Positions 29,184 through 56,894 of a stretch of DNA of 64,000 bases are shown here, one piece after another. Where the stretch lies: positions 69,973 through 133,972 of the forward strand of contig JAGXRP010000033.1 in the NCBI GenBank assembly GCA_018335795.1. Direction: 5' to 3'. Under the pieces are notes generated by a model. The model was not told where the DNA came from, did not search any database, and saw nothing but the letters and a program-made list of their open reading frames with translations. The first letter of the stretch is position 1, and each line of letters starts with the position of its first letter. Origin of the DNA: Desulfobulbaceae bacterium. GTDB lineage: Bacteria > Bacteroidota > Ignavibacteria > Kapaibacteriales > UBA2268. A program made the position numbers and the translations under genes.

Positions 29184-29593
29184 TCAATTCACTTACTGCT
29201 TTTTTACATATAATATATTTCTGTTTATTATCCAAATCACTTAAATTGAGTTTTGACAAAAATTTTGGCATTTACTTATATTTCTAACCCTTCATAAACA
29301 AATTCATAAAATATCATGAATATCTCTATTTTCTTATTAAAATGTGCAAATAAAAAGCACTATTAAAAATAAGAAAAACAAATAATCTAGTTAAATAATT
29401 CTTGTTACCTATTGCAATATATAGATATAAAGAACTATATTCACGTATTTCTTTTAACTTAATCCAACAACCTAATAACATAAAAAACTATAATTATCAC
29501 AACATAATAAATTAAAATAAAATAATTGTTTATCTAATAATAGTTATATATGTTTGGTTAAATTATTTGTTCAATTTTTTACAAGGTGTTAAG
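29184..29593. other. Intergenic region, very AT-rich
   Basis: These 410 bases separate the response regulator from the large T9SS-exported protein. The sequence is poor in G and C, with many A and T runs. Apart from the promoter-like site at 29526-29556, I see no ORF, RNA gene, strong hairpin or repeat. A terminator for the upstream gene is not obvious. Confidence 0.7.
29526..29556 (+). promoter_or_regulatory. Bacteroidota-type promoter for the large T9SS surface protein
   Basis: TTG at 29526-29528, a 20-base spacer, then TATGTTTG at 29549-29556. The predicted transcript would carry a leader of about 30 bases before the ATG at 29594, containing AAGGTG at 29583-29588 as a clear ribosome binding site. 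Confidence 0.5.
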
Positions 29594-32500
29594 ATGATGT
29601 TAAGATACTCATTAACAAAAAAGTTTTCAATTGCTTTTTTGTTGTTTCTGATACCAATTTTGATGAGTTTAGAAGCTAACTCTCAAAGTTGGGTTGCCCA
29701 AAATCAGCAAGATGGTTTTATTCTCAAAAAAGTTGTAAGCGATACTACAATTGCTACAGGACAGCCTTTCAGCTATACGATTTACTTTACAATCCCGGCA
29801 GGAGCTACAAACGTAACGATAACAGACCAGATTCCGGTAGGCTTGCAATTTCTCGCACATTCATTTACAAGTGCATGCGGAACTCCTACTGTAGTTGCTC
29901 CTGCAGTAAATGCAATGGGTGGCACATACTCGCTAAGTTGGGCAAGTTTACCGAGCGGTTGCACAGGTTCATTTACAGTAACTGTTGCATTCCCGAATGG
30001 GGTTACTTGCCCGGGAACAAGTGTCAGAAATAATGTATGTTTGATAGGAATGTTAAACGGCAAAGACTATGATTTCTGTACACCATTCGTGACAACGATA
30101 GCGACTGCCGTCAATCCTTGGGGAATCAACAAATATCCGCTTGGTGTATCTTGGCAAGGCGGGAATTGTCCTTATGCAACGGGTAACGATACTATCACAT
30201 ATCAAGTTTGCGTTTATAAATCTGTCGGTACTACAGGACAATTAAATCTGGTTAATGGAGTAGTAAGAGACACTCTACCAACCGGCGCAGTATTAGTAAA
30301 TTCAAATTGTGGAGCTACTCAATCAGGTAATATAATAACTTGGAATGTAGGCAATCTGAGTGCTCTTCCTTCTTACAATGCTGTTTGTTGCCAGTTTGTT
30401 GTTTACTATCCACCTGCTCTATTCCCGAACGGTACTAATATCACAAACAAAGCTACATTATCGGGTTCACTCGGAAGTGCAAATCAACCATGTAGTAATT
30501 TCAACGTGGTAAGTAACCAAACTTGTGTTCAGAAATTATCATTCACAAGCGGTTCTATCAGCAAATGGGCTTATACAAATCGCCAACCGGGTTGTTCCGG
30601 ACAGTATTTGATTTATATTTGCAACACCGGTACAACACCAATAGTAATTACAGCTTTGGATACACTTCCTTCGCAATTGTCAAATTACAGCCTTGGTTTT
30701 GTATGGGGGCTTAATGCAACACTCAATTCCGGTATTGTAAGTATAACTGATACTTTGGCACCGGGAGCTTGTGGTTATGTGTATATCAATTTTACTATCC
30801 CTGCTAATGCAGTTGTTGGTTCGACAATTACTAATTGTGCACATTTGTTTATTCCGGGCAATGCTCCACAAACGGTTTGTAATTCGTTTGTAGTAGATGC
30901 TCCTGCACCAAAACCTTGTGTGTGGAAAGAAGTTTGCAACAAGCAAGTTGATTACACTCCGGGATCTACATTCAGGTATCGCTTAAGAGTACAAAATACA
31001 GGTGGTATGCCAATAACCGGTTCTACTATAACTGATGTCCTTAACCCGAATCTCGAATATATTGGCAATCCGTCATCATATATCAGCAATTCGTACAATA
31101 CACCTTGTACTACAACTCCGGCAAATCCTTGGACCGGTGTAAATCTATCTTATAACACAGGTACAAATACAGTAACTGCGATACTCGATACAATTCCTGC
31201 TACTTGTCAAAATATATTCTACACGAATTGTGGAATGTACGGTACTTCTGGAGTTCCATACTACTTTATTGAATTTGATGTGAAAGTAAGAGATACAGCA
31301 GCTTTGGGTAGTGTGCCAAATCAATTTGTTCTTGCCGGTGGTTCACTTGGCACAACAACTCATCCATCAAACATCGAATATGTACTGATTACAGGAGTTG
31401 TTGGTTATAACTTACAGAAGGGAGTCAAAAAACCGTCTGACGCGAATTATACTCCTTCAATTTCAACTACTGCGGGTGCTACTGTTGATTATCGCTTGAA
31501 AATGAATTCTTCAGGCACAGCAGCTTTACGTCACGTAACTTTTGTTGATTTGTTACCGCGAAATGACGGCTCAAATGATGGGAAAATAATTTCCGCATGT
31601 TTGCCTCGAGGTAGTCAGTACGATGTTACTTATTCTGCATTATCATCGTCAACCCCGGCAATATTCTCAACATGGAATAATGCAGCCACTACATTGTCAA
31701 ATGTCAATAACCTCTCCCCGACCGGAATTCCGGGTTCAGCCTTTACTATTGGGTGTGGAACGGTAGGAACTTGGGCTGCAAATTGGAGTGCAGGACAGAA
31801 GAACATCGCAGCTTATTTTGGACCAAGTGCAATAGGCGTTACCGGAGCGACAATTGATTTCTCCGGTATAGTTGGCTCTACTGCCCAACCAAAACAAACT
31901 GCATGCAATACATTTGCGGTTAGTGGATGGACTAAACACTTGATTCAGAGTAGTCTCCCCACTTTCCAACTTGCGGGGCAACTCGAATCGCCTACCGCTT
32001 GTGTGGCAATTGATACTATTGTTAAACCTAAGCCATGTTTTGAAGAGTTGAAAATAGATGTTAAGTGCGACGGCGTTACTGCAGATGGGTTGAAGAAATA
32101 CATATTCACTATCAGTGCAGTTTCGTGTGCTCCGGCAACTTTGATTATAAGTTCGCCCGATGGCACTTTCACGCCATCTACATTTACTTTGGCATCAAGT
32201 CCATGGTCAATAAATACAAACTTCGCTCATACTTCTGCTAATAATCCTATAACCATAAATTACAGCCTACTTTGCAATGGCGAAGTTTGTCGTGACAGTA
32301 TTAAGAGGGATTTACCTGATTGCCCGAACGAACCGCCAATAGATGAATGTTGTGCGAAATTTATTCATAAAATCGAAACTCCCAAAATCAGTGCCAATAG
32401 CTCCACAGGCTCAGTTGCAATGGCTATTCCAATGACTGCAGGACCTGCTCCGATTAAATCATTTACAGCTACAATTGTAAGTGCACAAGTCAGACGAGTA

Positions 32501-33943
32501 TGTGGAAATAGTGCATCTGCATGGACTCGTGTATTTGGTGATATTACTGGTGGTAACTTAGCTGTTCCCCCGGCGCCGGGTCCACAGTTATTGTCTATAT
32601 TCAGTCGCGAAGCTAAATGGGGTCCCGGACATTGTATTGATTGGACGAAAGGTGCAACACTACAGCTTAATATGTTATTCCCACCCTTCTCAGGTGGATT
32701 GAAATGCCGTGACACACTACGTTACTCAATTAGATACAGCTTCACAGATTGTGAATGTAAAACTTGCGATACAGTTGTCACCTATACAGTTGTTAGAAAA
32801 TGGAAATTCTTACCTTGGGATGATGCTGTTGGAGAAATCAAATTTGATAGACTCACAGGAGAAGTTAAACCGGGTGGCGATGAATTCCAAAGTGAACAAC
32901 CTGATATTACTTCAATAATCATGGACGACGAAACCAATGGTACTTTGTGGGTAATCAGCCCCGACCATGTGGACAATGATGTTACCATAACAGCTATTGA
33001 AATGCGTTCATCCGAGGTCACAATACTTGAAATTTCTAATGGAGACGAGAAAGGCATCGTTCAAGATGACATAGCTTATGTAGCTACTAATTTTGCTCGT
33101 GGGGATGTCGGTGGAATTAAATTTAGGATTGGTAAAAGCACTCCACAGTTGTCATTTACAGTTAATGTCAGATATGCATATAAAATCGAAGGATATGATG
33201 AGACATTCTGGACCGAACCGATTCCTTATTTGGTAAGAGTACCAGGTGCTGCACCGGATATTTTGGATATCGAAAAGAATCACAAACCTGACAGAGTTCG
33301 TACATACGCAATGTATTTCAGTAGTTCTAACGGTTACAACCAAGATATTGCAGCAATTGGACTCAAACCAACAAATAATATGAGAATATTAGCTGTCGGT
33401 CCTCCAAATGCCGGAGATGAGCCCGCTTATTTAGTTCCTCGCAAGCAGGATGACGGCTCTTATATCATTACCGTTCCGGGCTTAGGAATAATGGGAGTTG
33501 AAGCTTTGACGCGTGTGAGCCCGATTTACATTACACTATCGAACGTTGACGATACTAATGCTGAAATTGAATTCACTACATTCGATGGAGATGCCGTAAT
33601 GGTTTCTACCGGTAACTTGATGCTTACCAATCCAATTTCATCGGTAATGAATGATGGATTTGATATGGGCAATGATTCGGAAATACAATCGGTAATTCCA
33701 AATCCGGCAAATAACACAGCCACGATTACAATTTCAGTCAAGCATGATGTCACAAGTGCCAAATTGAGCATAGTTGACGTTTTGGGACGTGAAGTAATCA
33801 CTGTAACAGATGCAAACTCGCTATTGATGCAAGGAACTCATCTGCATTCAGTTGACGTTAGCAAATTGCCTACAGGTATGTATTTCGTAACATTCGAAAC
33901 GAACAATTCAGTTGTTTCTAAACCACTTTCGATAGTGCGTTAA
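29594..33943 (+). CDS. Large secreted DUF11-type repeat protein with type IX secretion C-terminal sorting domain
   Basis: This 1449-residue protein starts at the ATG at 29594, five bases after AAGGTG, and opens with a Sec signal ending near LEANSQS. Several beta-sandwich units of the DUF11 kind follow (for example VTITDQIPVGLQFLAHS, VVRDTLPTGAVLVNSNC, STITDVLNPNLEYIGNP), rich in Cys, Asn, Thr and Gly. A Cys-rich segment near 920-930 (DECCAKF) precedes a different, more acidic region. The last 85 or so residues form a Por/T9SS sorting domain (IQSVIPNPANNTATITISVK through VDVSKLPTGMYFVTFET). The protein should be exported and anchored or released at the cell surface, as an adhesin or sheath-like component. 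Confidence 0.88.
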   Translation: MMLRYSLTKKFSIAFLLFLIPILMSLEANSQSWVAQNQQDGFILKKVVSDTTIATGQPFSYTIYFTIPAGATNVTITDQIPVGLQFLAHSFTSACGTPTVVAPAVNAMGGTYSLSWASLPSGCTGSFTVTVAFPNGVTCPGTSVRNNVCLIGMLNGKDYDFCTPFVTTIATAVNPWGINKYPLGVSWQGGNCPYATGNDTITYQVCVYKSVGTTGQLNLVNGVVRDTLPTGAVLVNSNCGATQSGNIITWNVGNLSALPSYNAVCCQFVVYYPPALFPNGTNITNKATLSGSLGSANQPCSNFNVVSNQTCVQKLSFTSGSISKWAYTNRQPGCSGQYLIYICNTGTTPIVITALDTLPSQLSNYSLGFVWGLNATLNSGIVSITDTLAPGACGYVYINFTIPANAVVGSTITNCAHLFIPGNAPQTVCNSFVVDAPAPKPCVWKEVCNKQVDYTPGSTFRYRLRVQNTGGMPITGSTITDVLNPNLEYIGNPSSYISNSYNTPCTTTPANPWTGVNLSYNTGTNTVTAILDTIPATCQNIFYTNCGMYGTSGVPYYFIEFDVKVRDTAALGSVPNQFVLAGGSLGTTTHPSNIEYVLITGVVGYNLQKGVKKPSDANYTPSISTTAGATVDYRLKMNSSGTAALRHVTFVDLLPRNDGSNDGKIISACLPRGSQYDVTYSALSSSTPAIFSTWNNAATTLSNVNNLSPTGIPGSAFTIGCGTVGTWAANWSAGQKNIAAYFGPSAIGVTGATIDFSGIVGSTAQPKQTACNTFAVSGWTKHLIQSSLPTFQLAGQLESPTACVAIDTIVKPKPCFEELKIDVKCDGVTADGLKKYIFTISAVSCAPATLIISSPDGTFTPSTFTLASSPWSINTNFAHTSANNPITINYSLLCNGEVCRDSIKRDLPDCPNEPPIDECCAKFIHKIETPKISANSSTGSVAMAIPMTAGPAPIKSFTATIVSAQVRRVCGNSASAWTRVFGDITGGNLAVPPAPGPQLLSIFSREAKWGPGHCIDWTKGATLQLNMLFPPFSGGLKCRDTLRYSIRYSFTDCECKTCDTVVTYTVVRKWKFLPWDDAVGEIKFDRLTGEVKPGGDEFQSEQPDITSIIMDDETNGTLWVISPDHVDNDVTITAIEMRSSEVTILEISNGDEKGIVQDDIAYVATNFARGDVGGIKFRIGKSTPQLSFTVNVRYAYKIEGYDETFWTEPIPYLVRVPGAAPDILDIEKNHKPDRVRTYAMYFSSSNGYNQDIAAIGLKPTNNMRILAVGPPNAGDEPAYLVPRKQDDGSYIITVPGLGIMGVEALTRVSPIYITLSNVDDTNAEIEFTTFDGDAVMVSTGNLMLTNPISSVMNDGFDMGNDSEIQSVIPNPANNTATITISVKHDVTSAKLSIVDVLGREVITVTDANSLLMQGTHLHSVDVSKLPTGMYFVTFETNNSVVSKPLSIVR

Positions 33944-45565: not shown

Positions 45566-48500
45566 ATGATGAAACTGAATTCCATATTTTTCTTTTTATT
45601 TTTTGCTTGTGCGAGTAATCCTTTATTAGCGCAAGAAAATTTTATCATCAAGCATGGTGACTCTATTGTTTCCGACCAACAAATTGGCTCTATGACAAGG
45701 GGCAAATATCATTTTCAACACTTTGTAAGCCCTGCTGCAGGGCTCGATAATGAACGTGAACAACTTTTGGTAAATACGGTATCAGGCAACTTACTATACA
45801 ATAGAACCGATTTCTTAAGTAATGATATTGGGTTTTCGATTAATGCAAAATTCACTTATAATAGTCTTAGCTCTTTCAACGGCAGATTTGGAGCAAAATG
45901 GCAGTTTTCATATAATATCAGGTATGCAACCAACAATGTCAATAAGAATGTGATGATTGTTCTTTCTGACGACAAAACAGAATTGTTCCAAAAAAGGTCC
46001 GATTCAGCCTTCCACCCTATTTATGGTTCAATCGGTCAACTTAAATTCGATAACGGAAACTATGTTTATACCGGTATTACAAATGATATTATAGCAAATG
46101 CTAATCCTTGTTATTACCAATTCAATGAGCCTGATAATCATTATGTCAGCAATATCAGTGATAATTTCGGCAATGAAATCAAATTTGAATATGTACAAAA
46201 CAGATTGACTCAAGTTGTATTTCCTTCAGGCAACAAACTGATTTTAAGTTACACAGATGAAAAATTGACAAAATTAAGATTTGGTGATACTCTAGAGATT
46301 ACCTATGAGTACGATGAGGAGGAGAATCTTATAAAAGTCATTTATCCGGATGCGACCTTTTACACATATGAATATGATGATTGCAACTTGTTACGCAAAA
46401 TAATTTTTCCAGCCGGAAACAGTATCAATATTGAATATGCTCCCGACCTATCAGTGCTAAAAGTGAATGTTGGCAATAATCTTGATTTTAGCTTTGTAAG
46501 CAATAGACAACTTAGAACTTTCAAAGTCATTTTGCCGAATAAAGCAAATTACCATTTTGATTATGATACACTTTTTAGGACTACTCGCATCGCAAATCCA
46601 AATGGTTCTACGGTTCTATATAGCTATAATGATAAATATGAACTAACCGTGGTTGAAAATCCTGAAGAATCAACCACCCGTTATTTCTATAACGATTTAG
46701 GTTTATTAACGATGACTATCAACCCTCTGAACCGACAAACGCTATATTCGTATGATTCAATTGGGAACTTGATGGAATATACCGACGCCGAAACCAATAA
46801 ATGGCAGTTTTCAAGAAATGAATCGGGAATCATCAACAAAATAACCGGTGGAAATAAAAGTTATGATTTCGATTTTGATAACAAAGGCATCTTAAAACGC
46901 TTCGAAATTGATGAACTTAGCATAAGATTCGACAATGATTCAAGAGGAAATCCGAGCCGAATAGCTTTTTCCGACCATATCCTGTATGATTTTCGTTATG
47001 ACCAATTTGGCTATATATCCTCATTTACACAGCCGGATAGGTTGATTTATGTCATCGAGAATAACTTCAAAGGTTTGTTCACTAAAATTGCATACCCTAA
47101 TCAAAGTTCAAAAGAGTTTGAATATATAAACAGCTCGAATCTATACAAAGTTATTAGAAATGATGGCGTTGTTCTCAAGTTTTTGTATGATAATGCAATG
47201 AGACCCGAATCATTCAAACTTGGAAATATTCCCGAGTTCATAGCTGAATACAAAAGCTACGATTCCATTATTTTTAAAACACCTATCCTATCGCAAGCCC
47301 ATTTAGTTTATGGAAAAAATCGAAAACTTGCATCACTTTACGATTTCAATAACATCGAATCCAATTATGATTACGACAAAAGAGATAATTTGATAGCTGA
47401 ATATATAACTAACAACAGAGTTTCAAGCCGTTATTACAATCTTAACAACGAAATGATTGAATGTACTGTTTTAGGTTTTCAAGAAACCTTTTCGTACGAT
47501 AAACTGTCGAGACTTATTACCTATTCTAATCCAAATGGTACAAAATCTTTCCAATATGATGCGTTTTCAAATTTGATTAATTATATATCTTCTTCAAATG
47601 TTCAGTATACTTTCCAATATGATTTTTTGAACAATCTTAGAACTATTCTTCGCAACTCACAATCTATGGCTACATTCAACTATGACATATACGGGAATCT
47701 AATCGCTTTAAACAAGCCAGGCCAGATTCACATCAATTATGAAAATGATGAGTTGGGACTTGCCAAATCTTTGACAATTAACAATGGTACACCAATTCAA
47801 TATCGGTACAATTCCTTAAGAAAGGTGTCGAGGATTAATAATGGGATGATTGAATTGACCTATATTTACGATAAAGTGAATAGATTATCAGAAATCAAAA
47901 AAGATAATAATCAGTTTAAGGCTTACTCTTATGATCAAATTGGCAAAGTCAGTGAAATTTTAAATAATGATATACCCAAAGCAAGTTATGAATATAATGC
48001 AATTGGCTCACTGAACCAAATCACTCAAAACGGTACTACACATAATTTAATGACGTCGCCAAAGTCATTATCTTTAAGTTATTTTGGTGACTTCAGTTAT
48101 ACGTATGGGTTCAGTGATTTTTATAAGCTCGAATCAGTTTCAAATACTACTAATGATGAGATTCGATTCATCTATGATGATGCTGAGAGATTGAGTGAAA
48201 TTTTAGCCGATGGATTAAAATTCGGATTTACATACAGTAATTCTTTACTAATCAGTTCATACACTGATGGCGATAATAACAGAGTCTCTTTGAATTACAG
48301 TCCTATAGGCAATTTGATTGCTATCATAGACCCAAATTTGAATTCAACCGGAATTTTACACGATGTCTTTGGAAACATTACAAGTTTTGTAAATAGTCAA
48401 AATAGACCGGTAACATTTCAATATGAAAATGACTTATTAGCCAAAATTAATTTCTCAAACGGTGATTCCATTAGATATATTTATAATCAATATGGGCAAC

Positions 48501-51500
48501 AAATCCGAAAAATAACTGAAAGAGCATTTGCAACAAATTATGAGTATAATTCCTTTGGGCTACTTTCCAAAGTCTATGATGCAAACATGTCGAAGTATTT
48601 TTCATATGACAAAGATATGAATTTGGCTCAAATTGTCAACGAGTTGAATGATACTTTAAAGATAAGTAATCAAAATAATCGAATAAAAAGCATCCAAATG
48701 TATGATTTTGATTTATCGGCAAGCTATTTGAATGGAAAACTTGTTTCCTTAGATTTGAATGGGTTACCCTTTTCAAGAATGACATATGATAATTTTGGTT
48801 TTGTGAATTCATATATTTACTTGAGTGATTACAAAATCATTCTAAGCAATAATCACACAGGATTGCTAAATCAAAAAACAGATTATAATAACTATACTGT
48901 TGTCAATTTCCGAGATAAAATCGGAAGAACTTTAAGAAAAAACTTTCACGATGCCACTTCGGAACTGTTTTCATATACTAATAGCGGGAAAATCTCATCT
49001 CTCATTGATAGGGCTAACTCTGAATTTTTGATTCGATACGACAAAGCTAAACGACCGATTAGCTTTATCGTAAACAGATTTGATTCATTGCGATACGTTT
49101 ACAATTCTGTTGGAGATATTATCAGAATTGCAGAGCCAATGGGGAACAGTTTTGAATTTCAATATAATTCTATGGGCAACTTGACTTCAATTATTTCTCC
49201 AATCGCATATATTCTTAATTTCAGCTACAACAAACAAGCAAATGACTTCAAGATGTACGATAATTCAGGCGATACAATTACATTCCGATTAGACAACTAC
49301 TATAGAATTGTAAGCAAAACAGACAAAATCGGCAGAGTGAGTAATTTAAGTTATGATAATTTAGGCAATAGGCTTAGTATAATTCAAAACGGTGATACAA
49401 ACCATATTTATCGCGAAGATAAATATGGCAGGATTACGAATTCTAAAAATTGCTCATCTACGAATTTATACTCTTATATCGGCAAGCAATTGAAACCAAG
49501 TTCAATTATAGCTAATAGTGTAGATTACGCAATCAATTCAAGCAATAAATTATTTGAAACATGGGTGAACAGCATACTTCAAACTACAATAAGTTTTAAC
49601 TTGAATCATAACATTACTTCAGTTACGATTCCAACAATAGGGACATACAATTATGTTTATGATGTAAATCAATATCTGGCACGTATCAGTCATTCAAACA
49701 AAAATTTAATCAATTTCAAATTTTCTCCTATCGGTGAAATTGAAAGTGTTGAGTATAATTCTTTGAAATATTTTTTTGCTTACGACACAAAAATCAATTT
49801 GCAAAGCATTGAAAAAGCCGGCAAAAGTTACTCCTACTATTATGATGGCAACTCAAATTTGATAATCAAGGATTACCCGACAGGATTTGATAATTTTTTT
49901 GAATATGATGATTGGAACCGATTGAAAATTCGTTTTGACCAATCAGGCAACGTTTTTGATTACACATATAATAACATTGGGCAAACCAAAACTATTTCAA
50001 AATCAAGTCCTGAGAATGAACTCATAACTTATGAATATGATAAAGCGGGCAGATTGCATCTTTTAAAGAATTTTCTTAATGGTCAAGAGCCGATTATTGC
50101 ATACCAATATGATAATCTCAATAATTTGAAATCATTAGCATTGAATGGTCAAAGCGTGATTCAAATCAGCAAAGCATCAAAATTATTTATTGATACAGTA
50201 AAATTTGGTTCCGAACATTCTATAATTGTGCATAAAAATAGTAGTGGTTTGCCATTACGAATTCAATATGATGATGATTCGGAGGTACGATACGAATATG
50301 ATTTGAAAAACAGACTTTCCAATGTAAGTATTTTCATTTCGGAAAATTTAGGCAAATCATATAATTACGTCTATGACAATGCTGATAGATTAGTAAAAAT
50401 ATCGAGTAATACCGATACTTCCCTTTTCGCTTTGACTTATAATGAATGGTCCGAATATACAAAGGTTGCTACTATGGACAATTCAACAATATTCGATTAT
50501 GATAATGCCGGAAGAGTAATCTCACGAAACGAAAATGGTGAATTGATACTCTACACTTACGGTTCAAACAGCAATATTCCACATAAAATTGCTGATGCTT
50601 TCATCTATACAAATGAGTCAGAGAATATTAGCTCAATTTCCAATGGCAATGAACAATACGGATTTTTCTATAATAATGAAGACCAATTGATTGGTTATTC
50701 CGGTCCAAATGGTGATTTCACCACATTGCGTTACAACAACGAAGGAATATTGTCAAAATCAATTAGTAAAGATACAATCCACTATTTTGATATTCCATTA
50801 CAAAGCCAATCACCCAATTATTTTGCTGTAACTAAAAACAGTAATTCATTGAAAATAAACAACTATTTTTACAATCTTTTCGACCATCAAGAGCTTTTGT
50901 TTTCATTAGATTCAAATGGAAACCCTAATCATTTGATAAAAGATATATTTGGTAACTTGCTTGCTTATTCATCAGCTGATTCAATTATATATAGTGAATA
51001 TTTCACTTATGATAATGTAGAGGAATCGAAATCACCCAATCCACAATATAAATTCAGGAACTTAGTATCAATTCCTGAAACAGATTTATATTATGACGGG
51101 GTAGATTTCTTTCATAAAGATTTCAAAATTTTTATTACTCGCAATAAACGCTTAGAACGGAATTCATCATTTTTGCCTATACTCGGCAAAATGAACACTA
51201 AGCCAAATTTGAGTGATTTGATAAAGTATCATATTGATTCTGAATTAATTATAGGAGGTACAGATAATTATAGTAAAATAGTTGAACAAATCAAAAGGGA
51301 CAACTTGATTGAGGAAATGATAAACGCTGAGTTGAATCTCCAATATAACCATTTCCAAACTTATAAAGTCAGAAGTCAGTTTAATCAACATAGAACAAAA
51401 TTCGATTTCCTGAGCCCAAATGATATAGATACCGATTACATAGTGGGCACTTCAAACAATAAAATGCCGGTTCTTGCAATGACTCCAACCGGGATGAATC

Positions 51501-52183
51501 TGCTTAGCGATACTGTATTCAAAAAAGCTTACATGGAGCCAATTATCTATGACTATCGCTTGATTCCACGTTACACAAGCAATCGAATCGAAAATATATT
51601 GAGTTTGATGAAATACTTAAAAATTGAAGGTGACCAATTTGTAAGAATACTCAATTTGATTAACAAACTGTTAACGATTGGTCAATATAAGCTACCTTCA
51701 AACATTACAGACATCTCTCCTATTTGCATTGATTTCATGATGATGGACTCCATAATGAGACAAAATGATTATGTACGTATAGTTGTTGATGCCTCAGAAC
51801 CGATTGACGAATGGCAAGAGTCATTGAATAACCTAAAAGCAAACTTTGAAATGTTCCAAAATGAGATAATTCAGCACAAAAAGAATTCTAACCGTCAGGT
51901 GGACATAATGAATCCCGGTTTTAAATTATACAAGCCAAATTTCGATATTCCGACAAGAATAAACCATGTACCAAGCATTTTTTATGATTACCTAAGAGTT
52001 CACGAGGAAAACATTTCTAACGTTATATCTAAAATGTTAAGTATTGAACTTAATGATGGATTAGACTCAAAATGTAGATATGACAGCACAATTGAACTGC
52101 CGTTTAGATTCGACACACTCGATGACTTGAATTTAAGAAATATTAGACCAATTTATCAAAATTATTTTCGTTTTTTACGTTAA
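45566..52183 (+). CDS. Giant secreted RHS/YD-repeat protein
   Basis: This 2205-residue protein has a signal peptide (MMKLNSIFFFLFFACASNPL). Most of its length (about 130-1800) is a chain of YD repeats of the type YxYDxxGNL (for example FSYDKLSRLITYSNPNG and YEYDKAGRLHLLKNF), which in RHS/teneurin proteins wrap into a hollow beta shell. Near 1826 a degenerate RHS-core-like segment appears (FRNLVSIPETDLYYDG), lacking the usual GRF-type autoproteolytic sequence. The remaining roughly 360 residues are mixed alpha/beta with no motif I recognise. No T9SS sorting domain, VgrG or PAAR gene is present. Function may be a surface or toxin-delivery shell. Confidence 0.85.
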   Translation: MMKLNSIFFFLFFACASNPLLAQENFIIKHGDSIVSDQQIGSMTRGKYHFQHFVSPAAGLDNEREQLLVNTVSGNLLYNRTDFLSNDIGFSINAKFTYNSLSSFNGRFGAKWQFSYNIRYATNNVNKNVMIVLSDDKTELFQKRSDSAFHPIYGSIGQLKFDNGNYVYTGITNDIIANANPCYYQFNEPDNHYVSNISDNFGNEIKFEYVQNRLTQVVFPSGNKLILSYTDEKLTKLRFGDTLEITYEYDEEENLIKVIYPDATFYTYEYDDCNLLRKIIFPAGNSINIEYAPDLSVLKVNVGNNLDFSFVSNRQLRTFKVILPNKANYHFDYDTLFRTTRIANPNGSTVLYSYNDKYELTVVENPEESTTRYFYNDLGLLTMTINPLNRQTLYSYDSIGNLMEYTDAETNKWQFSRNESGIINKITGGNKSYDFDFDNKGILKRFEIDELSIRFDNDSRGNPSRIAFSDHILYDFRYDQFGYISSFTQPDRLIYVIENNFKGLFTKIAYPNQSSKEFEYINSSNLYKVIRNDGVVLKFLYDNAMRPESFKLGNIPEFIAEYKSYDSIIFKTPILSQAHLVYGKNRKLASLYDFNNIESNYDYDKRDNLIAEYITNNRVSSRYYNLNNEMIECTVLGFQETFSYDKLSRLITYSNPNGTKSFQYDAFSNLINYISSSNVQYTFQYDFLNNLRTILRNSQSMATFNYDIYGNLIALNKPGQIHINYENDELGLAKSLTINNGTPIQYRYNSLRKVSRINNGMIELTYIYDKVNRLSEIKKDNNQFKAYSYDQIGKVSEILNNDIPKASYEYNAIGSLNQITQNGTTHNLMTSPKSLSLSYFGDFSYTYGFSDFYKLESVSNTTNDEIRFIYDDAERLSEILADGLKFGFTYSNSLLISSYTDGDNNRVSLNYSPIGNLIAIIDPNLNSTGILHDVFGNITSFVNSQNRPVTFQYENDLLAKINFSNGDSIRYIYNQYGQQIRKITERAFATNYEYNSFGLLSKVYDANMSKYFSYDKDMNLAQIVNELNDTLKISNQNNRIKSIQMYDFDLSASYLNGKLVSLDLNGLPFSRMTYDNFGFVNSYIYLSDYKIILSNNHTGLLNQKTDYNNYTVVNFRDKIGRTLRKNFHDATSELFSYTNSGKISSLIDRANSEFLIRYDKAKRPISFIVNRFDSLRYVYNSVGDIIRIAEPMGNSFEFQYNSMGNLTSIISPIAYILNFSYNKQANDFKMYDNSGDTITFRLDNYYRIVSKTDKIGRVSNLSYDNLGNRLSIIQNGDTNHIYREDKYGRITNSKNCSSTNLYSYIGKQLKPSSIIANSVDYAINSSNKLFETWVNSILQTTISFNLNHNITSVTIPTIGTYNYVYDVNQYLARISHSNKNLINFKFSPIGEIESVEYNSLKYFFAYDTKINLQSIEKAGKSYSYYYDGNSNLIIKDYPTGFDNFFEYDDWNRLKIRFDQSGNVFDYTYNNIGQTKTISKSSPENELITYEYDKAGRLHLLKNFLNGQEPIIAYQYDNLNNLKSLALNGQSVIQISKASKLFIDTVKFGSEHSIIVHKNSSGLPLRIQYDDDSEVRYEYDLKNRLSNVSIFISENLGKSYNYVYDNADRLVKISSNTDTSLFALTYNEWSEYTKVATMDNSTIFDYDNAGRVISRNENGELILYTYGSNSNIPHKIADAFIYTNESENISSISNGNEQYGFFYNNEDQLIGYSGPNGDFTTLRYNNEGILSKSISKDTIHYFDIPLQSQSPNYFAVTKNSNSLKINNYFYNLFDHQELLFSLDSNGNPNHLIKDIFGNLLAYSSADSIIYSEYFTYDNVEESKSPNPQYKFRNLVSIPETDLYYDGVDFFHKDFKIFITRNKRLERNSSFLPILGKMNTKPNLSDLIKYHIDSELIIGGTDNYSKIVEQIKRDNLIEEMINAELNLQYNHFQTYKVRSQFNQHRTKFDFLSPNDIDTDYIVGTSNNKMPVLAMTPTGMNLLSDTVFKKAYMEPIIYDYRLIPRYTSNRIENILSLMKYLKIEGDQFVRILNLINKLLTIGQYKLPSNITDISPICIDFMMMDSIMRQNDYVRIVVDASEPIDEWQESLNNLKANFEMFQNEIIQHKKNSNRQVDIMNPGFKLYKPNFDIPTRINHVPSIFYDYLRVHEENISNVISKMLSIELNDGLDSKCRYDSTIELPFRFDTLDDLNLRNIRPIYQNYFRFLR

Positions 52184-52232: not shown

Positions 52233-53867
52233 ATGAAATATATACAAAGACTGACATTTATAAACATTTTCTCGATTTCGATTCTTGTAATATTAGGCGC
52301 ATGTTCAAGTTCACCTAAATCAAACAAATATGATATTTCTAATATTTTAGCTAAAGATTTCATCATACAGGTGGACACAACAAGATTGCAAAAAGCAGCC
52401 ATCAGTCATGTTGTTCGTGGGTCAACTCTTCAAAATCAAGGTGAATTTGCACTTTCGGTAATCGAATTTCAGGAAGCATTGCGATATGACAAAAGTCCGG
52501 GAATTTATCTTGCTTTAGCCAATTCTTATAGAAACCTTTTCAAATTTGAATTAGCTCACGAGTCTGTCAGTCATGCAATTGCATTAGACCCTGGATTCGA
52601 ACCTGCATACCTTTTATTAGCTGAAATTCTCATTCCACTCAGAAAATACGATGAAGCGATTCAAACACTTGAGTATTGCTACGATAAATTTGGTAAAGTT
52701 GAGTTGCTAATATATATCGCAAGTGTTTATGAATACACAGACAAACGCAAAGCACTTGAGTATTTTTCTAAGGTACCCGAAGATAAATTGGACTTGTTCA
52801 CTTTGTATCGAATTTCGGAATTATCGAAATCATTGAATGACACAATCCGTCAAAAAAAGACCCTATTGAAAATGATTGCAAAAGCACCTGATAATTTCAA
52901 TCCTCATAGTGTTATGCTTGATTTTTATTTGGATAACAAGGACTTAGAAAGTGCTATAGATCTGATATTTTCTACTGAGAAAAAGTGGAATTTTGATGAC
53001 TTGAAATCAATGTATTCAAGAGTTGGTGTGTTTTTTTTGATGAATTCATTCCAAACGGACACTGTGCAAGCTCGAAGATATGTGGAAAAGGTCGATAACA
53101 GATTCCAATTTGATGAATTCATGCAATTTGTCGGGGGTGCTGTCAATCAACAAATCGGCGATACAGTCAAAGCTGATAAATTTTTAACCTATTTGCTGAA
53201 AAATGGTGAAAATAAAGCTTTCAATGCGGTTGAAATTGCACAGATTTATGTCTTTTCAAGCAGATGGGACAAAGTAATTGAAGTATTGAAGGATTTTGAA
53301 AACTCAGAAGATGATATGCGTTATCATTATTTTTTAGGCATTGCTTACATGCAAACTCATGACTATCAAACTGCTGAAAACTTAATGTTGCAAGCATTAA
53401 AGTTAGATAGCGATAATGCCGATATATTGTCTAATCTAGGGTTTATTTATCATGAATTGGACGATTATGATAAGTCTAATCAATATTACAAAAAGGCTAT
53501 GATGATTATGCCTGATAATGCACTTTTGAATAATAATTATGCATATACACTATCTGAACAAAATATTGATTTGCAAAAAGCTTTGGAAATGTCTGAATTT
53601 TCATTGAAGGAAGACCCCGAAAATGCCTCTTATCTTGACACTTATGGCTGGATAATGTTTAAAATGGGGAAATATGATAAGGCGCTGGAATATTTGTTAA
53701 AGTCCTACACAAACACGGAATCTATTTCGGCTGAGATATGTTTGCATCTTGTAGAAGTTTATTTGAAGTTGAATGACACAGCGAATGCAAAAAAATATCT
53801 TAATATTGGTTTAGATATGTTTCCGAAAGACAAAAAATTGTTAGATTTGTCAGATAAAATTAAGTAA
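52233..53867 (+). CDS. TPR-repeat lipoprotein
   Basis: This 544-residue protein has a lipoprotein signal (ILVILGACSSSP; Cys near residue 24). At least eight tetratricopeptide-like units follow, densest from about 55 to 130 and 350 to 530 (for example AEIYLALANSYRNL-type helices, ADILSNLGFIYHELDDYDKS, ASYLDTYGWIMFKMGKYDKA). The layout resembles large outer-membrane TPR lipoproteins of Bacteroidota that organise envelope complexes. It lies 50 bases after the YD-repeat giant and 33 bases before motA, so it may belong with either. No enzymatic motif is seen. Confidence 0.83.
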   Translation: MKYIQRLTFINIFSISILVILGACSSSPKSNKYDISNILAKDFIIQVDTTRLQKAAISHVVRGSTLQNQGEFALSVIEFQEALRYDKSPGIYLALANSYRNLFKFELAHESVSHAIALDPGFEPAYLLLAEILIPLRKYDEAIQTLEYCYDKFGKVELLIYIASVYEYTDKRKALEYFSKVPEDKLDLFTLYRISELSKSLNDTIRQKKTLLKMIAKAPDNFNPHSVMLDFYLDNKDLESAIDLIFSTEKKWNFDDLKSMYSRVGVFFLMNSFQTDTVQARRYVEKVDNRFQFDEFMQFVGGAVNQQIGDTVKADKFLTYLLKNGENKAFNAVEIAQIYVFSSRWDKVIEVLKDFENSEDDMRYHYFLGIAYMQTHDYQTAENLMLQALKLDSDNADILSNLGFIYHELDDYDKSNQYYKKAMMIMPDNALLNNNYAYTLSEQNIDLQKALEMSEFSLKEDPENASYLDTYGWIMFKMGKYDKALEYLLKSYTNTESISAEICLHLVEVYLKLNDTANAKKYLNIGLDMFPKDKKLLDLSDKIK

Positions 53868-53900
53868 AAAACAAAATCCTTAAAATAAATTGGATAAACG

Positions 53901-54761
53901 ATGTTTGTAATTGTTGGAATTATTGTGGTTTTTGTTTGTGTGTTCGGCGGCTTCTTTTGGGCAGCAGAATTCAATATGGATGCAGTAGCATTTTTTCTTC
54001 ATCCTTATGAATACATTATAATTGGTGGTGCTTCGATTGGATCTATGTTAATAGCCAATTCCAAAGACCTGAACATGCGCATAATAAAAGGAGCTCTGGG
54101 CATATTTAAAGGTGCCACAGTTAACAAACAATCATATACCGAATTGTTGAGAATGCTTTATGAATTGTTTCAATTTGCAAAACGCGAAGGCTTGATAGCG
54201 TTGGAACAACACATTGAAGCACCCGAATCAAGTACTATAATCTCCAAATACCCATCTTTTTTGGCAAACCATCATGCAGTAGATTTCCTTTGCGATACTC
54301 TTAAAGTAGTGCTCTCCGGTGGCGTACCTGCCCATGAATTAGAAGAACTGATGGATATTGACCTCGAAAACATTCATCAAGACGAACACCACCCGCCCGC
54401 AGCACTAAATATTGTTTCAGATGCTTTGCCCGGACTGGGTATAGTTGCCGCAGTTTTAGGTATTATCGTAACTATGCTTTCGATTACTGCCGGTGCCGAA
54501 ACAGTCGGTAAGAAAGTAGGTGGTGCATTAGTTGGTACATTCATGGGCGTTTTGCTTGCGTATGGATTTGTAGGTCCAATTGCACGTAATATGGAAAAGA
54601 CTGTTGAACAAGAAGCAAAATATTTGGAATGTATCAAAGCAGCCCTTTTGGCATTTGCAAAGAGCATGCCCCCGACTGTAGCTATCGAATACGGCAGAAG
54701 AGCAATTGACCCTCATAACAGACCAAGCTTTAAAGAAACCGAAGAAGCGATAAAAGGCTAA
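53901..54761 (+). CDS. motA: Motor stator protein MotA
   Basis: This 286-residue inner-membrane protein has four hydrophobic segments (FVIVGIIVVFVCVFGGFF; YEYIIIGGASIGSMLIA; PGLGIVAAVLGIIVTMLSI; GTFMGVLLAYGFVGPIA). The cytoplasmic loop shows AKREGLIALEQHIE, the charged rotor contact region, and the conserved Pro of TM3 is kept. With MotB it makes a proton channel that drives the flagellar or a related rotary motor. motB begins 10 bases after its stop. No other flagellar gene is in the window. Confidence 0.93.
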   Translation: MFVIVGIIVVFVCVFGGFFWAAEFNMDAVAFFLHPYEYIIIGGASIGSMLIANSKDLNMRIIKGALGIFKGATVNKQSYTELLRMLYELFQFAKREGLIALEQHIEAPESSTIISKYPSFLANHHAVDFLCDTLKVVLSGGVPAHELEELMDIDLENIHQDEHHPPAALNIVSDALPGLGIVAAVLGIIVTMLSITAGAETVGKKVGGALVGTFMGVLLAYGFVGPIARNMEKTVEQEAKYLECIKAALLAFAKSMPPTVAIEYGRRAIDPHNRPSFKETEEAIKG

Positions 54762-54771
54762 TCAAAACACT

Positions 54772-55680
54772 ATGTCTGAACAAAAGAGTCAAAAAGAACA
54801 ACCAATAATCATAAAAAAGGTTAAAAAGGGAGGCGGTCACGGTCACCATGGTGGTGCGTGGAAAGTTGCCTATGCCGATTTTGTTACTGCAATGATGGCG
54901 TTCTTTATCGTTATGTGGATATTGGCATCATCTGAAGAAGTGAAAATGCAAGTCGCCGAATATTTTGAGCATCCTGACAGGTTTGAACTTTTTTCAGGGA
55001 AAAAGAAGTCAGGTCCTATACCGATTGAACTTGACTTAGAAAACTCAAAACGTAGGGCTGAAATAAGCGCTTCTAAAGGCGAAGGGGAATCTATCTTGAA
55101 ATTTGACAAAGAGACCACAGATACTTTGTATCAGAAACTATTGAATAAAGCTGTTCAAGATAGTATCTTAGCCCAAGAAAGAGTCGAGCAAATTGGTGAC
55201 GATTTACGCAAGAGATTTTCACAATTAATGACCGAAATGCCGGAAATGGAGAAGATACTTTCTTCAATTAAAATAGAAATGACCAAAGAGGGATTAAGAA
55301 TTGAATTAATCGAATCAACTGAATCGCTATTTTTTGAAATCGGCAGTAGTAAATTAAGCAAAGCAGCGATTAATATACTAAAAGTTTTAGGTCGTGAAAT
55401 TGGTAAACTACCCAACTATGTTGACATCGAAGGACATACTGATAGTCGTAGCTATCGAGGAGCATCTGATTACAGTAACTGGGAATTATCTACCGATAGA
55501 GCAAATGCGTCGAGGCGCATGCTCGAACGTGAAGGGTTGTGGGATGGTCAAATCGTCGAAGTAAAAGGATTTGCCGATAAGAGACTTCGGAATCCCGATA
55601 ATCCTTTCGACATGTCAAACAGACGCATCAGCATACTTATAAAACACATAAACGTTGACCAATTCTTACCGGAGTTATAA
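54772..55680 (+). CDS. motB: Motor stator protein MotB
   Basis: This 302-residue protein has a His/Gly-rich cytoplasmic lead and one membrane helix with the proton-binding Asp at residue 36 (AYADFVTAMMAFFIVMWILA), followed by a plug region and a C-terminal OmpA-like peptidoglycan-binding domain (VDIEGHTDSRSYRGASDYSN, then ELSTDRANASRRML and NRRISILI). The Asp context is of the H+ type rather than the Na+ PomB type. Its stop shares a base with the start of the next gene (TAATG at 55678-55682). Confidence 0.95.
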   Translation: MSEQKSQKEQPIIIKKVKKGGGHGHHGGAWKVAYADFVTAMMAFFIVMWILASSEEVKMQVAEYFEHPDRFELFSGKKKSGPIPIELDLENSKRRAEISASKGEGESILKFDKETTDTLYQKLLNKAVQDSILAQERVEQIGDDLRKRFSQLMTEMPEMEKILSSIKIEMTKEGLRIELIESTESLFFEIGSSKLSKAAINILKVLGREIGKLPNYVDIEGHTDSRSYRGASDYSNWELSTDRANASRRMLEREGLWDGQIVEVKGFADKRLRNPDNPFDMSNRRISILIKHINVDQFLPEL

Positions 55681-56894
55681 TGGAAGAACAAAAATCAAAT
55701 GATATTATCAAAATCTTAGTAGTAGATGATGACTCATCAAACAACCTTGCTATAGAAACATTGATAAGAATTCATTTTCCGGATATCAAAGTTTTTTTAG
55801 CTTTTGATGGGTTGGAAGCCTTCAATATAGCTCAAAACGAATACCCTGATATTATTATCTCCGACATCACAATGCCAAAAATGAATGGTTTTGAATTACT
55901 AACAAAAATCAGGAGCAGAAACGAACTTTCTGATGCTATCTTTATCTTTTTGACTGCAAGTGTTGAGGATGATATTTATACACACGCTATTGAAATTGGA
56001 GCAGATGACTTTCTGGGAAAACCCATAGAAAGCAATCGTTTGTTAGTAAGAATACGCTCATCGTTACGCATAATTAATCTAAAGCGTCAGGTTAGAAGCG
56101 AAAACAAGTTATTGATGGAACTTGCTGAAGCACTCGAAAACGATATGCAGGATATGATTAAATTGGCTGTTAAATTTCTTGAAGCCAGAATCCCTGCATC
56201 AATCGATATACTCAAAAGAGTTTCGCAATGCTCAGTTTGGATAATGAAAAATCTTAGTGAATATGATGAAGAGAGTCTTCGTGATATTGAAATTGCTTCT
56301 TTCCTTTCTCAAGCCGGAAGGATTTTTCTCCCCGATTCCATGCTAAAAATGCCTGTACTAATTGATGGAGCACCAACAGACCCCTTAATGTGCCAAGTTC
56401 CTCAATCAGGCAAAGCAATTGTTGAAAGTATAAACCGATTCCGTCACGTAGCTTTAATCATCGGTCATATCTACGAAAATTTCGATGGAAGCGGAATTCC
56501 TGAACGGCTCAAATCATGGCAAATACCATTAGAATCAAGAATTATCAGAGCATCATTAGACTTTGAAGAACTCAGAGCACTAAGGAATTTATCATCCAAA
56601 AATGCAATCGAAATATTGAGAAAAGAATCCCAAAGACTTTATGATAATAGAGTAATTATACTACTTGAGCAATATCTAAAATCGCATGATAAGGAATTAT
56701 TCGACCCATTTGAAATGGCAGTTCAACTTGCCGAACTCAAAGAAGGAATGATAATAACTCGTGACATTTATACTAACAAGGGACTTAAATTAATTCCGTC
56801 AGGTGCTACACTATCAACTAAGACAATTGAAAGGTTGATTTCGCATAATTCGACCGACCCTATCCTTGGGAACGTCCACGTAAAGAAAGGCTAG
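55680..56894 (+). CDS. Response regulator: receiver plus degenerate HD-GYP-like domain
   Basis: This 404-residue protein has a receiver domain at 1-130: VVDDDSSNN, phospho-Asp near 62 in IIISDITMPKMNG, and Lys in FLGKPIES. The output half is HD-GYP-shaped, but the HD pair reads SQ (FLSQAGRIFLPDSML) and the later His-His-Glu reads GHIYENFDGSGIPERL, where the GSGIP loop is kept. A C-terminal module (AELKEGMIITRDIYTNKGLKL) matches the one at 28050-29183. The gene is translationally coupled to motB, so it may tune motor or c-di-GMP-linked behaviour. Catalytic hydrolysis of c-di-GMP is unlikely. Confidence 0.85.
   Translation: MEEQKSNDIIKILVVDDDSSNNLAIETLIRIHFPDIKVFLAFDGLEAFNIAQNEYPDIIISDITMPKMNGFELLTKIRSRNELSDAIFIFLTASVEDDIYTHAIEIGADDFLGKPIESNRLLVRIRSSLRIINLKRQVRSENKLLMELAEALENDMQDMIKLAVKFLEARIPASIDILKRVSQCSVWIMKNLSEYDEESLRDIEIASFLSQAGRIFLPDSMLKMPVLIDGAPTDPLMCQVPQSGKAIVESINRFRHVALIIGHIYENFDGSGIPERLKSWQIPLESRIIRASLDFEELRALRNLSSKNAIEILRKESQRLYDNRVIILLEQYLKSHDKELFDPFEMAVQLAELKEGMIITRDIYTNKGLKLIPSGATLSTKTIERLISHNSTDPILGNVHVKKG

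What the first reader, a model, noticed from the sequence alone, without database searches (positions are those of the whole stretch)
45566..52183. Secreted 2205-residue YD-repeat shell with an unknown C-terminus
Seen: about 1700 residues of YD repeats, a weak RHS-core remnant near 1826 without the usual self-cleavage signature, then about 360 residues unlike any domain I recognise. There is no VgrG, PAAR, T9SS domain or obvious immunity gene; the next gene is a TPR lipoprotein. Inference: a surface-exposed or released shell, possibly carrying a toxin or enzyme, exported in a way not evident here.
Basis: partly seen in the sequence, partly recalled or inferred. Interest (0 to 1): 0.7.

Follow-up and report, generated by a model that had tools for sequence, protein, structure and literature searches.

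The report
Conserved uncleaved YD-repeat shell protein
A giant secreted protein of the kind bacteria often use as a toxin capsule appears here as a fixed, inherited gene, with its release mechanism lost and its tail kept, in front of flagellar-motor genes in three related genera; it looks more like a capsule turned into a cell-envelope part than a weapon.

Summary
In detail: 45566-52183 is one intact ORF (2205 aa) with a signal peptide, ~1670 residues of YD/RHS shell, a degenerate RHS core and ~340 residues matching no curated domain above cut-off. The toxin reading is not supported. The tail is not hypervariable: among three congeners it is about as conserved as the shell (71/71/83% against 71-74/71-75/84-86%), with dN/dS 0.10-0.18. 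It occurs in 7 of 54 family genomes (three genera) and nowhere else firmly in 123 genomes of the order or 391 sampled from the class. The two-aspartate self-cleavage pattern was found in 0 of 7 members. No immunity gene, T6SS, Tc or teneurin N-terminus was found, and no T9SS sorting tail, although this genome has at least 150. The following TPR gene heads the motA-motB operon in 20 of 20 loci fetched from tail-less genomes; the YD gene lies directly upstream of it in 6 of 6 uncut loci. One congener shows no FliF, FlhA or MotA but keeps YD and TPR intact. Best reading: a domesticated, uncleaved, probably periplasmic shell whose tail stays attached as plug or partner-binding chain. Location, mechanism and tail fold (AlphaFold2 pLDDT 36.5) are unproved.

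The parts
45566..52183 (+). YD-repeat shell protein, 2205 aa
   Evidence: intact ORF; RHS_repeat and DUF6531; intact syntenic orthologues in both other genomes of the genus
45566..45634 (+). Signal peptide, about residues 1-23
   Evidence: read by eye: hydrophobic segment then LLAQ; hydrophobic N-termini also in relatives; no signal-peptide program run
45635..45769 (+). Short N-terminal segment, residues 24-68; no PAAR, NHL, FN-plug or adhesin domain matched
   Evidence: no Pfam/NCBIfam hit there; 78-80% identical to congeners
45770..50785 (+). YD/RHS shell, residues 69-1740, starting with DUF6531 (69-139)
   Evidence: AlphaFold2 beta-rich, pLDDT mostly 60-87 over about residues 1055-1715, with low stretches near 1276-1335 and 1426-1445; Foldseek top hits by E-value are Rhs shells
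50786..51160 (+). Degenerate RHS core region, residues 1741-1865
   Evidence: two-aspartate pattern found in 0 of 7 family members; 78-80% identical to the congeners
51161..52180 (+). Conserved C-terminal tail, residues 1866-2205; last 30 residues 93-97% identical in the genus
   Evidence: found in 7 of 54 family genomes
52233..53867 (+). TPR lipoprotein (LGAC lipobox), head of the motAB operon in this family
53901..54761 (+). MotA
   Evidence: TIGR03818, 349.6 bits over the 303.8 cut-off
54772..55680 (+). MotB
   Evidence: MotB_plug and OmpA
55680..56894 (+). Response regulator with HD domain, end of the conserved block

Best explanation
A domesticated Rhs/YD capsule. Ancestrally a Sec-exported YD-shell protein, it became a fixed envelope component in one lineage of this Ignavibacteriota family. 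The self-cleavage centre was lost, so the roughly 340-residue tail stays covalently attached. The tail is most likely laid as a chain of short helices inside the closed shell, or emerges from it as a ligand, and does not leave as a toxin. Without a recognised outer-membrane export signal the protein most likely stays in the periplasm, where the TPR lipoprotein encoded directly downstream is its likeliest partner, possibly as a scaffold near the stators. Shown: intact gene, conserved tail, lost cleavage motif, conserved adjacency, retention after motor loss in one congener. Inferred: periplasmic location, TPR binding, tail inside the shell, structural role.
For: Full-length orthologues, 73-74% identical, in 2 of 2 other genomes of the genus, at the same locus. 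Tail identity 71/71/83% against 71-74/71-75/84-86% for the shell; tail dN/dS 0.099-0.177 against 0.125-0.142 for the shell. The tail is found in 3/3, 3/3 and 1/1 genomes of three genera; the g19 profile finds the window genus at E 1e-7 to 1e-5, the best of 1400 shuffles being 0.01. Two-aspartate pattern in 0 of 7. YD-TPR adjacency on the same strand, gap 49-78 bp by mechanical ORF starts, in 6 of 6 uncut loci. G002 has no match to FliF, FlhA or MotA, and motA-motB-RR is absent from its locus, yet YD and TPR are intact and no more diverged from G000 than those of G001. At least 150 T9SS tails in this genome, none on this protein. MotA+MotB tree: g1 and g19 are sisters, support 1.000.
Against: No experiment shows location or binding. 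AlphaFold2 gives the tail region mostly under pLDDT 50 in both runs (mean 36.5 over the 516 residues of the first; 10-residue blocks of 23-56 after about residue 1725 in the second), so 'inside the shell' is unproved. TPR is also kept where neither FliF nor MotA is found in two genomes without the tail (G009, 89% complete; G056, 84%), so its retention in G002 does not prove dependence on YD. At least two of three g19 TPR proteins (G020, G055) lack a lipobox cysteine. The TPR tree does not group g1 with g19, though its deep nodes are poorly supported. The profile of the window genus alone finds g14 but hardly g19. The FliF tree joins g14 to the others only weakly (0.33 and 0.43). Fixed toxins exist (general knowledge), and surface export by untested routes is possible.
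Confidence: 0.45

Rival explanations
1. A toxin capsule with one fixed cargo: the tail is an effector of unknown fold, released by a host or target protease instead of self-cleavage.
For: The YD shell is the classic toxin cage; the tail follows the core where Rhs cargo sits; the tail has no known domain.
Against: Monomorphic tail, syntenic in the genus; no immunity gene in the 49-78 bp gaps, and the next gene is in 40 of 54 family genomes; no invariant H, C, S, T, E, Q, K or R in the tail (alignment at 17-21% identity between genera); self-cleavage pattern not found.
Confidence: 0.18
2. A surface adhesin or recognition protein, teneurin-like in use, exported by a route not recognised here.
For: Uncleaved YD shells serve adhesion in animal teneurins; mammalian ones lack the cleavage motif (PMC13018210, Results part 1 of 3); signal peptide present.
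Against: No N-terminal adhesion, NHL or FN-plug domain matched; no T9SS tail; no convincing lipobox by eye.
Confidence: 0.2
3. A flagellar accessory: the shell is a stator scaffold working only with MotAB.
For: In 5 of 6 uncut loci the order is YD-TPR-motA-motB-RR; TPR is with motAB in 20 of 20 loci fetched from tail-less genomes.
Against: G002 keeps YD and TPR with no FliF, FlhA or MotA found; FliF is found in 48 of 54 family genomes and the tail in only 7 of 54.
Confidence: 0.1
4. A decaying relic of a toxin locus.
For: Degenerate core.
Against: Low dN/dS along the whole length in the genus and no frame breaks in the six complete loci; the one TAA flagged (G055) is the gene's own stop, the match running past it.
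Confidence: 0.02

Closest known systems
Rhs/YD polymorphic toxins (T6SS Rhs, e.g. 8h8a, 7pq5; Tc BC cocoon)
   Same: YD-repeat shell; best PDB sequence match 8h8a at E 1.4e-25; Rhs chains head the Foldseek list by E-value
   Different: no T6SS or Tc N-terminus matched, no paired DPxG self-cleavage pattern, fixed instead of variable tail, no immunity gene adjacent
Bacterial teneurin-like proteins (PMC13018210)
   Same: large secreted YD shell; sequence match to 9ifo at E 3.9e-14
   Different: no FN-plug, NHL or TIP region matched; in that paper the C-terminal domain is polymorphic and an immunity gene follows almost all TLP genes (Results part 1 and passages)
Mosquito SGS1 (PMC9935623)
   Same: YD shell holding a long C-terminal chain of helices (passages); the tail here is predicted helical, at low confidence
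   Different: SGS1 has added receptor domains, predicted transmembrane helices and a putative cleavage site; the tail here has no strongly hydrophobic stretch (max 19-residue mean 1.26 in 7 tails)
G008 YD protein L031 (same family)
   Same: 31% identical over query residues 25-419; core and first part of the tail align (hhalign probability 83%)
   Different: core nearer the standard form by eye, remainder of the tail not aligned, not next to TPR (TPR lies on another contig)

Membership tests
Rhs/YD polymorphic toxin | YD/RHS repeat shell | tested here: met
   RHS_repeat E 1.6e-59; 13 Rhs or teneurin-like sequences in the PDB at E <= 0.01
Rhs/YD polymorphic toxin | RHS core with two aspartate motifs for self-cleavage | tested here: not met
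   loose pattern in 0 of 7 members and 0 of 2 G008 paralogues; in 6 of 13 other YD ORFs over 1000 aa, some cut at contig ends
Rhs/YD polymorphic toxin | hypervariable C-terminus on a conserved shell | tested here: not met
   tail about as conserved as the shell in three congeners; homologous in three genera
Rhs/YD polymorphic toxin | immunity gene directly downstream | tested here: not met
   49-78 bp gap to a TPR gene found in 40 of 54 family genomes, 34 of them without the tail
Rhs/YD polymorphic toxin | toxic C-terminal domain | not testable with these tools
   no domain match; no assay
T6SS Rhs / Tc BC component | PAAR, VgrG or TcB-type N-terminus | tested here: not met
   no such family listed for the protein at E 0.01; only 45 residues between signal peptide and DUF6531
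Teneurin-like protein | FN-plug and NHL before the shell | tested here: not met
   none listed at E 0.01; 45 residues leave no space for them
T9SS client | C-terminal sorting domain | tested here: not met
   no TIGR04183 on the protein or on the 7 tails, at least 150 elsewhere in the genome
TPR-motA-motB operon | TPR gene directly followed by motA and motB | tested here: met
   20 of 20 loci fetched from genomes without the tail; 5 of 6 YD loci

The most novel reading that the evidence does not exclude
A polymorphic-toxin capsule domesticated as a permanent periplasmic machine part: a sealed YD shell with a built-in, never-released tail that works with a TPR lipoprotein in the cell envelope, gained once at the head of the stator operon and kept even after the flagellum was lost.
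Probability: 0.3. Interest if true: 0.72.

Novelty: new variant of a known kind. Interest (0 to 1): 0.5.

Why it matters
The bacterial YD-shell structures matched here are titled as T6SS Rhs proteins, Tc components or teneurin-like proteins, that is, toxin carriers; the known change of role is in animals (teneurins). A bacterial shell with its cleavage centre lost, its tail frozen and no immunity gene would be a bacterial counterpart of that change, and the motor-less congener offers a natural test of what it works with.

Tried and rejected
Tail against PDB by profile: best 4uzz E 0.027, taken as chance. IML1 hit in Pfam: below the cut-off, 3 of 7 members, about 48 residues; rejected. PADLOC: nothing for the YD protein or its tail, weak hits for the TPR protein (best 2.9e-6). 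AlphaFold2 on residues 1690-2205 (7 rows): pLDDT 36.5, not used. AlphaFold2 on 1006-2205 (9 rows): mean 51.4; parts of the shell usable, tail not; Foldseek TM-scores against PDB are low (0.06-0.20, rmsd 28-41 in the 50 rows shown), so only the E-values and the nature of the hits were used. G118 match (E 6e-4, 586-aa frame) regarded as chance. Promoter scan 69 found against 59.9 (sd 8.4) in shuffles, terminator scan 6 against 5.9: uninformative. The idea that TPR survives motor loss only with YD was tested and failed. The genome-contig scan gave one locus, L053, on a contig of 571,465 bases, the length of G002's contig C40. Literature searches; YD repeat with Ignavibacteri* gave 0 papers, the others were seen as listings; papers opened: PMC13018210 (outline, Results part 1 of 3, passages), PMC8636562 and PMC9935623 (passages only). 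No described non-toxin bacterial YD shell was seen in these; subscription journals are mostly not covered.
Full report
WHERE IT IS. The window is part of a 3.5 Mb draft genome. The only named relative found is a MAG titled Ignavibacteriae bacterium HGW-Ignavibacteriae-1, tail 72% identical (taxonomy Ignavibacteriota). The family holds 54 searchable genomes.

OBSERVATION. The ORF at 45566-52183 is intact, 2205 aa. It has a signal peptide (by eye), 45 residues without a domain match, DUF6531 and YD repeats to about residue 1740, a degenerate RHS core and a 340-residue tail without a domain match above a cut-off.

NOT POLYMORPHIC. Both other genomes of the genus have full-length orthologues at the same locus, 73 and 74% identical. 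For the three pairs, tail identity is 71, 71 and 83%; shell identity (two halves) is 71-74, 71-75 and 84-86%. dN/dS of the tail is 0.099, 0.116 and 0.177, of the shell 0.125, 0.133 and 0.142 (dS exceeds 1 for two pairs). The last 30 residues are 93-97% identical. In polymorphic toxins the tail changes while the shell is kept; here it does not. The dN/dS test covers the genus only.

DISTRIBUTION. A tail profile finds 7 of 54 family genomes: 3/3 of the window's genus (g1), 3/3 of g19, 1/1 of g14. In the order it finds 8 of 123, the same 7 plus one weak match. In 391 genomes sampled from the class it finds 6: five of the seven plus the same weak match, with at most 5 candidates scored per listed genome. 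Between genera the tail is 17-21% identical to the window's. A profile of g19 alone scores the window genus at E 1e-7 to 1e-5 and g14 at 4e-15; the best of 1400 shuffled tails scores 0.01. The reverse profile, from the window genus, finds g14 (1e-7) but of g19 only one of three, at 0.02 with the best shuffle at 0.03; so the g1-g19 link rests on the g19 profile, on g14 as a bridge and on whole-protein homology. A MotA+MotB tree of 25 genomes makes g1 and g19 sisters (1.000); the TPR tree does not, with poorly supported deep nodes. A FliF tree of 20 genomes groups g1, g14 and g19 with weak support (0.43). One gain is the simplest reading, not a proven one.

SELF-CLEAVAGE LOST. One Rhs protein was shown to cut itself at paired DPLGL motifs 17 residues apart, as in Tc toxins (PMC8636562, passages). 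A loose form of this pattern was found in 0 of 7 members of this family (an isolated second half matches in G002, upstream of the core), in 0 of 2 G008 paralogues, and in 6 of 13 other YD ORFs over 1000 aa fetched here. Of the other seven of those 13, two run off a contig end where the core would lie (L026, L040), L041 and L045 keep near-forms and L044 a partly changed one by eye, one L038 ORF has the first half only and the other L038 ORF none. The G008 protein L031 looks intermediate.

NO CATALYTIC SIGNATURE. The seven-member tail alignment has 13 invariant columns: N, F, P, D, I, L, I, N, I, N, Y, I, P; ten more are shared by 6 of 7, one of them a lysine. None of the 13 is H, C, S, T, E, Q, K or R. 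At this divergence misalignment could hide some.

NEIGHBOURS. The TPR gene is found in 40 of 54 family genomes at E 1e-30, 34 of them without the tail. I fetched 20 of these 34 loci; in 20 of 20 motA and motB follow directly, and in 18 of 20 the RR-HD gene too. Two more of the 34, fetched later because their genomes show no MotA, have TPR without motA beside it (G009, G056). The TPR gene is therefore normally part of a stator operon, neither an immunity gene nor a partner private to the YD protein. In all 6 uncut YD loci the YD gene is directly upstream of TPR on the same strand, gap 49-78 bp by mechanical ORF starts; the seventh (G015) is cut by contig ends, and no TPR match was found in that 85% complete genome.

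A NATURAL KNOCK-OUT. G002 (98% complete) has no match to FliF, FlhA or MotA, and motA-motB-RR is missing from its locus while both flanks remain. YD and TPR are intact and as similar to the window's as those of G001, which has FliF, FlhA and MotA. So YD is not simply a motor part. Against over-reading: of five genomes with neither FliF nor MotA found (G002, G009, G043, G048, G056), TPR is present in three, two of them without the tail and under 90% complete.

LOCATION. SprA of the T9SS is present in 8 of 8 genomes tested, and this genome has at least 150 T9SS tails (150 of 215 candidates were scored), none on the YD protein. The tail profile gave a single match per positive genome at E <= 1, so the tail is not a shared sorting signal. 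Periplasm is the default inference, untested. The TPR protein has a lipobox by a strict pattern in 17 of 26 genomes and, by eye, a cysteine at the end of the signal in 6 more; G020 and G055 have none and the start of G054 is unclear.

FOLD. Parts of the YD shell are predicted with fair confidence, and the best Foldseek matches by E-value are Rhs proteins, then teneurins. The tail is not predictable from 7-9 sequences. It has no strongly hydrophobic stretch. Precedents for a chain inside a YD shell are Rhs/Tc toxins and SGS1, about 230 residues (PMC9935623, passages).

VERDICT. A real, conserved and unusual variant of the Rhs/YD shell. A toxin role is unlikely. The envelope role is the best inference at moderate confidence.

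Noticed in passing
window 52233-56894: TPR-motA-motB-RR(HD) is a conserved block in this family; the TPR protein diverges fast (about 25-34% identical to the window's in other genera) while MotA stays at 57-82%.
   Followed up: yes
L028 (G002:C40): A congener with no FliF, FlhA or MotA found and motA-motB-RR missing between intact flanks: apparent loss of the flagellum.
   Followed up: partly
L026 1-6290 (G000:C34): A second YD-repeat protein of the same genome, cut by the contig end, of a different type; the 299-aa neighbour carries a T9SS tail match (G000:C34:6309-6542).
   Followed up: no
L031 and L032 (G008): Two YD paralogues in one genome; L031 looks intermediate between a standard RHS core and the degenerate one.
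   Followed up: partly
window 33692-33925: T9SS sorting tail at the end of the 1458-aa ORF 29567-33943.
   Followed up: no
G000:C51:11-1057: A partial second FlhA-like match at a contig edge, besides the full one on C62; possible contamination or second copy.
   Followed up: no
G038: A relative of the same order with 39 YD-type matches, on seven contigs in the rows listed.
   Followed up: no
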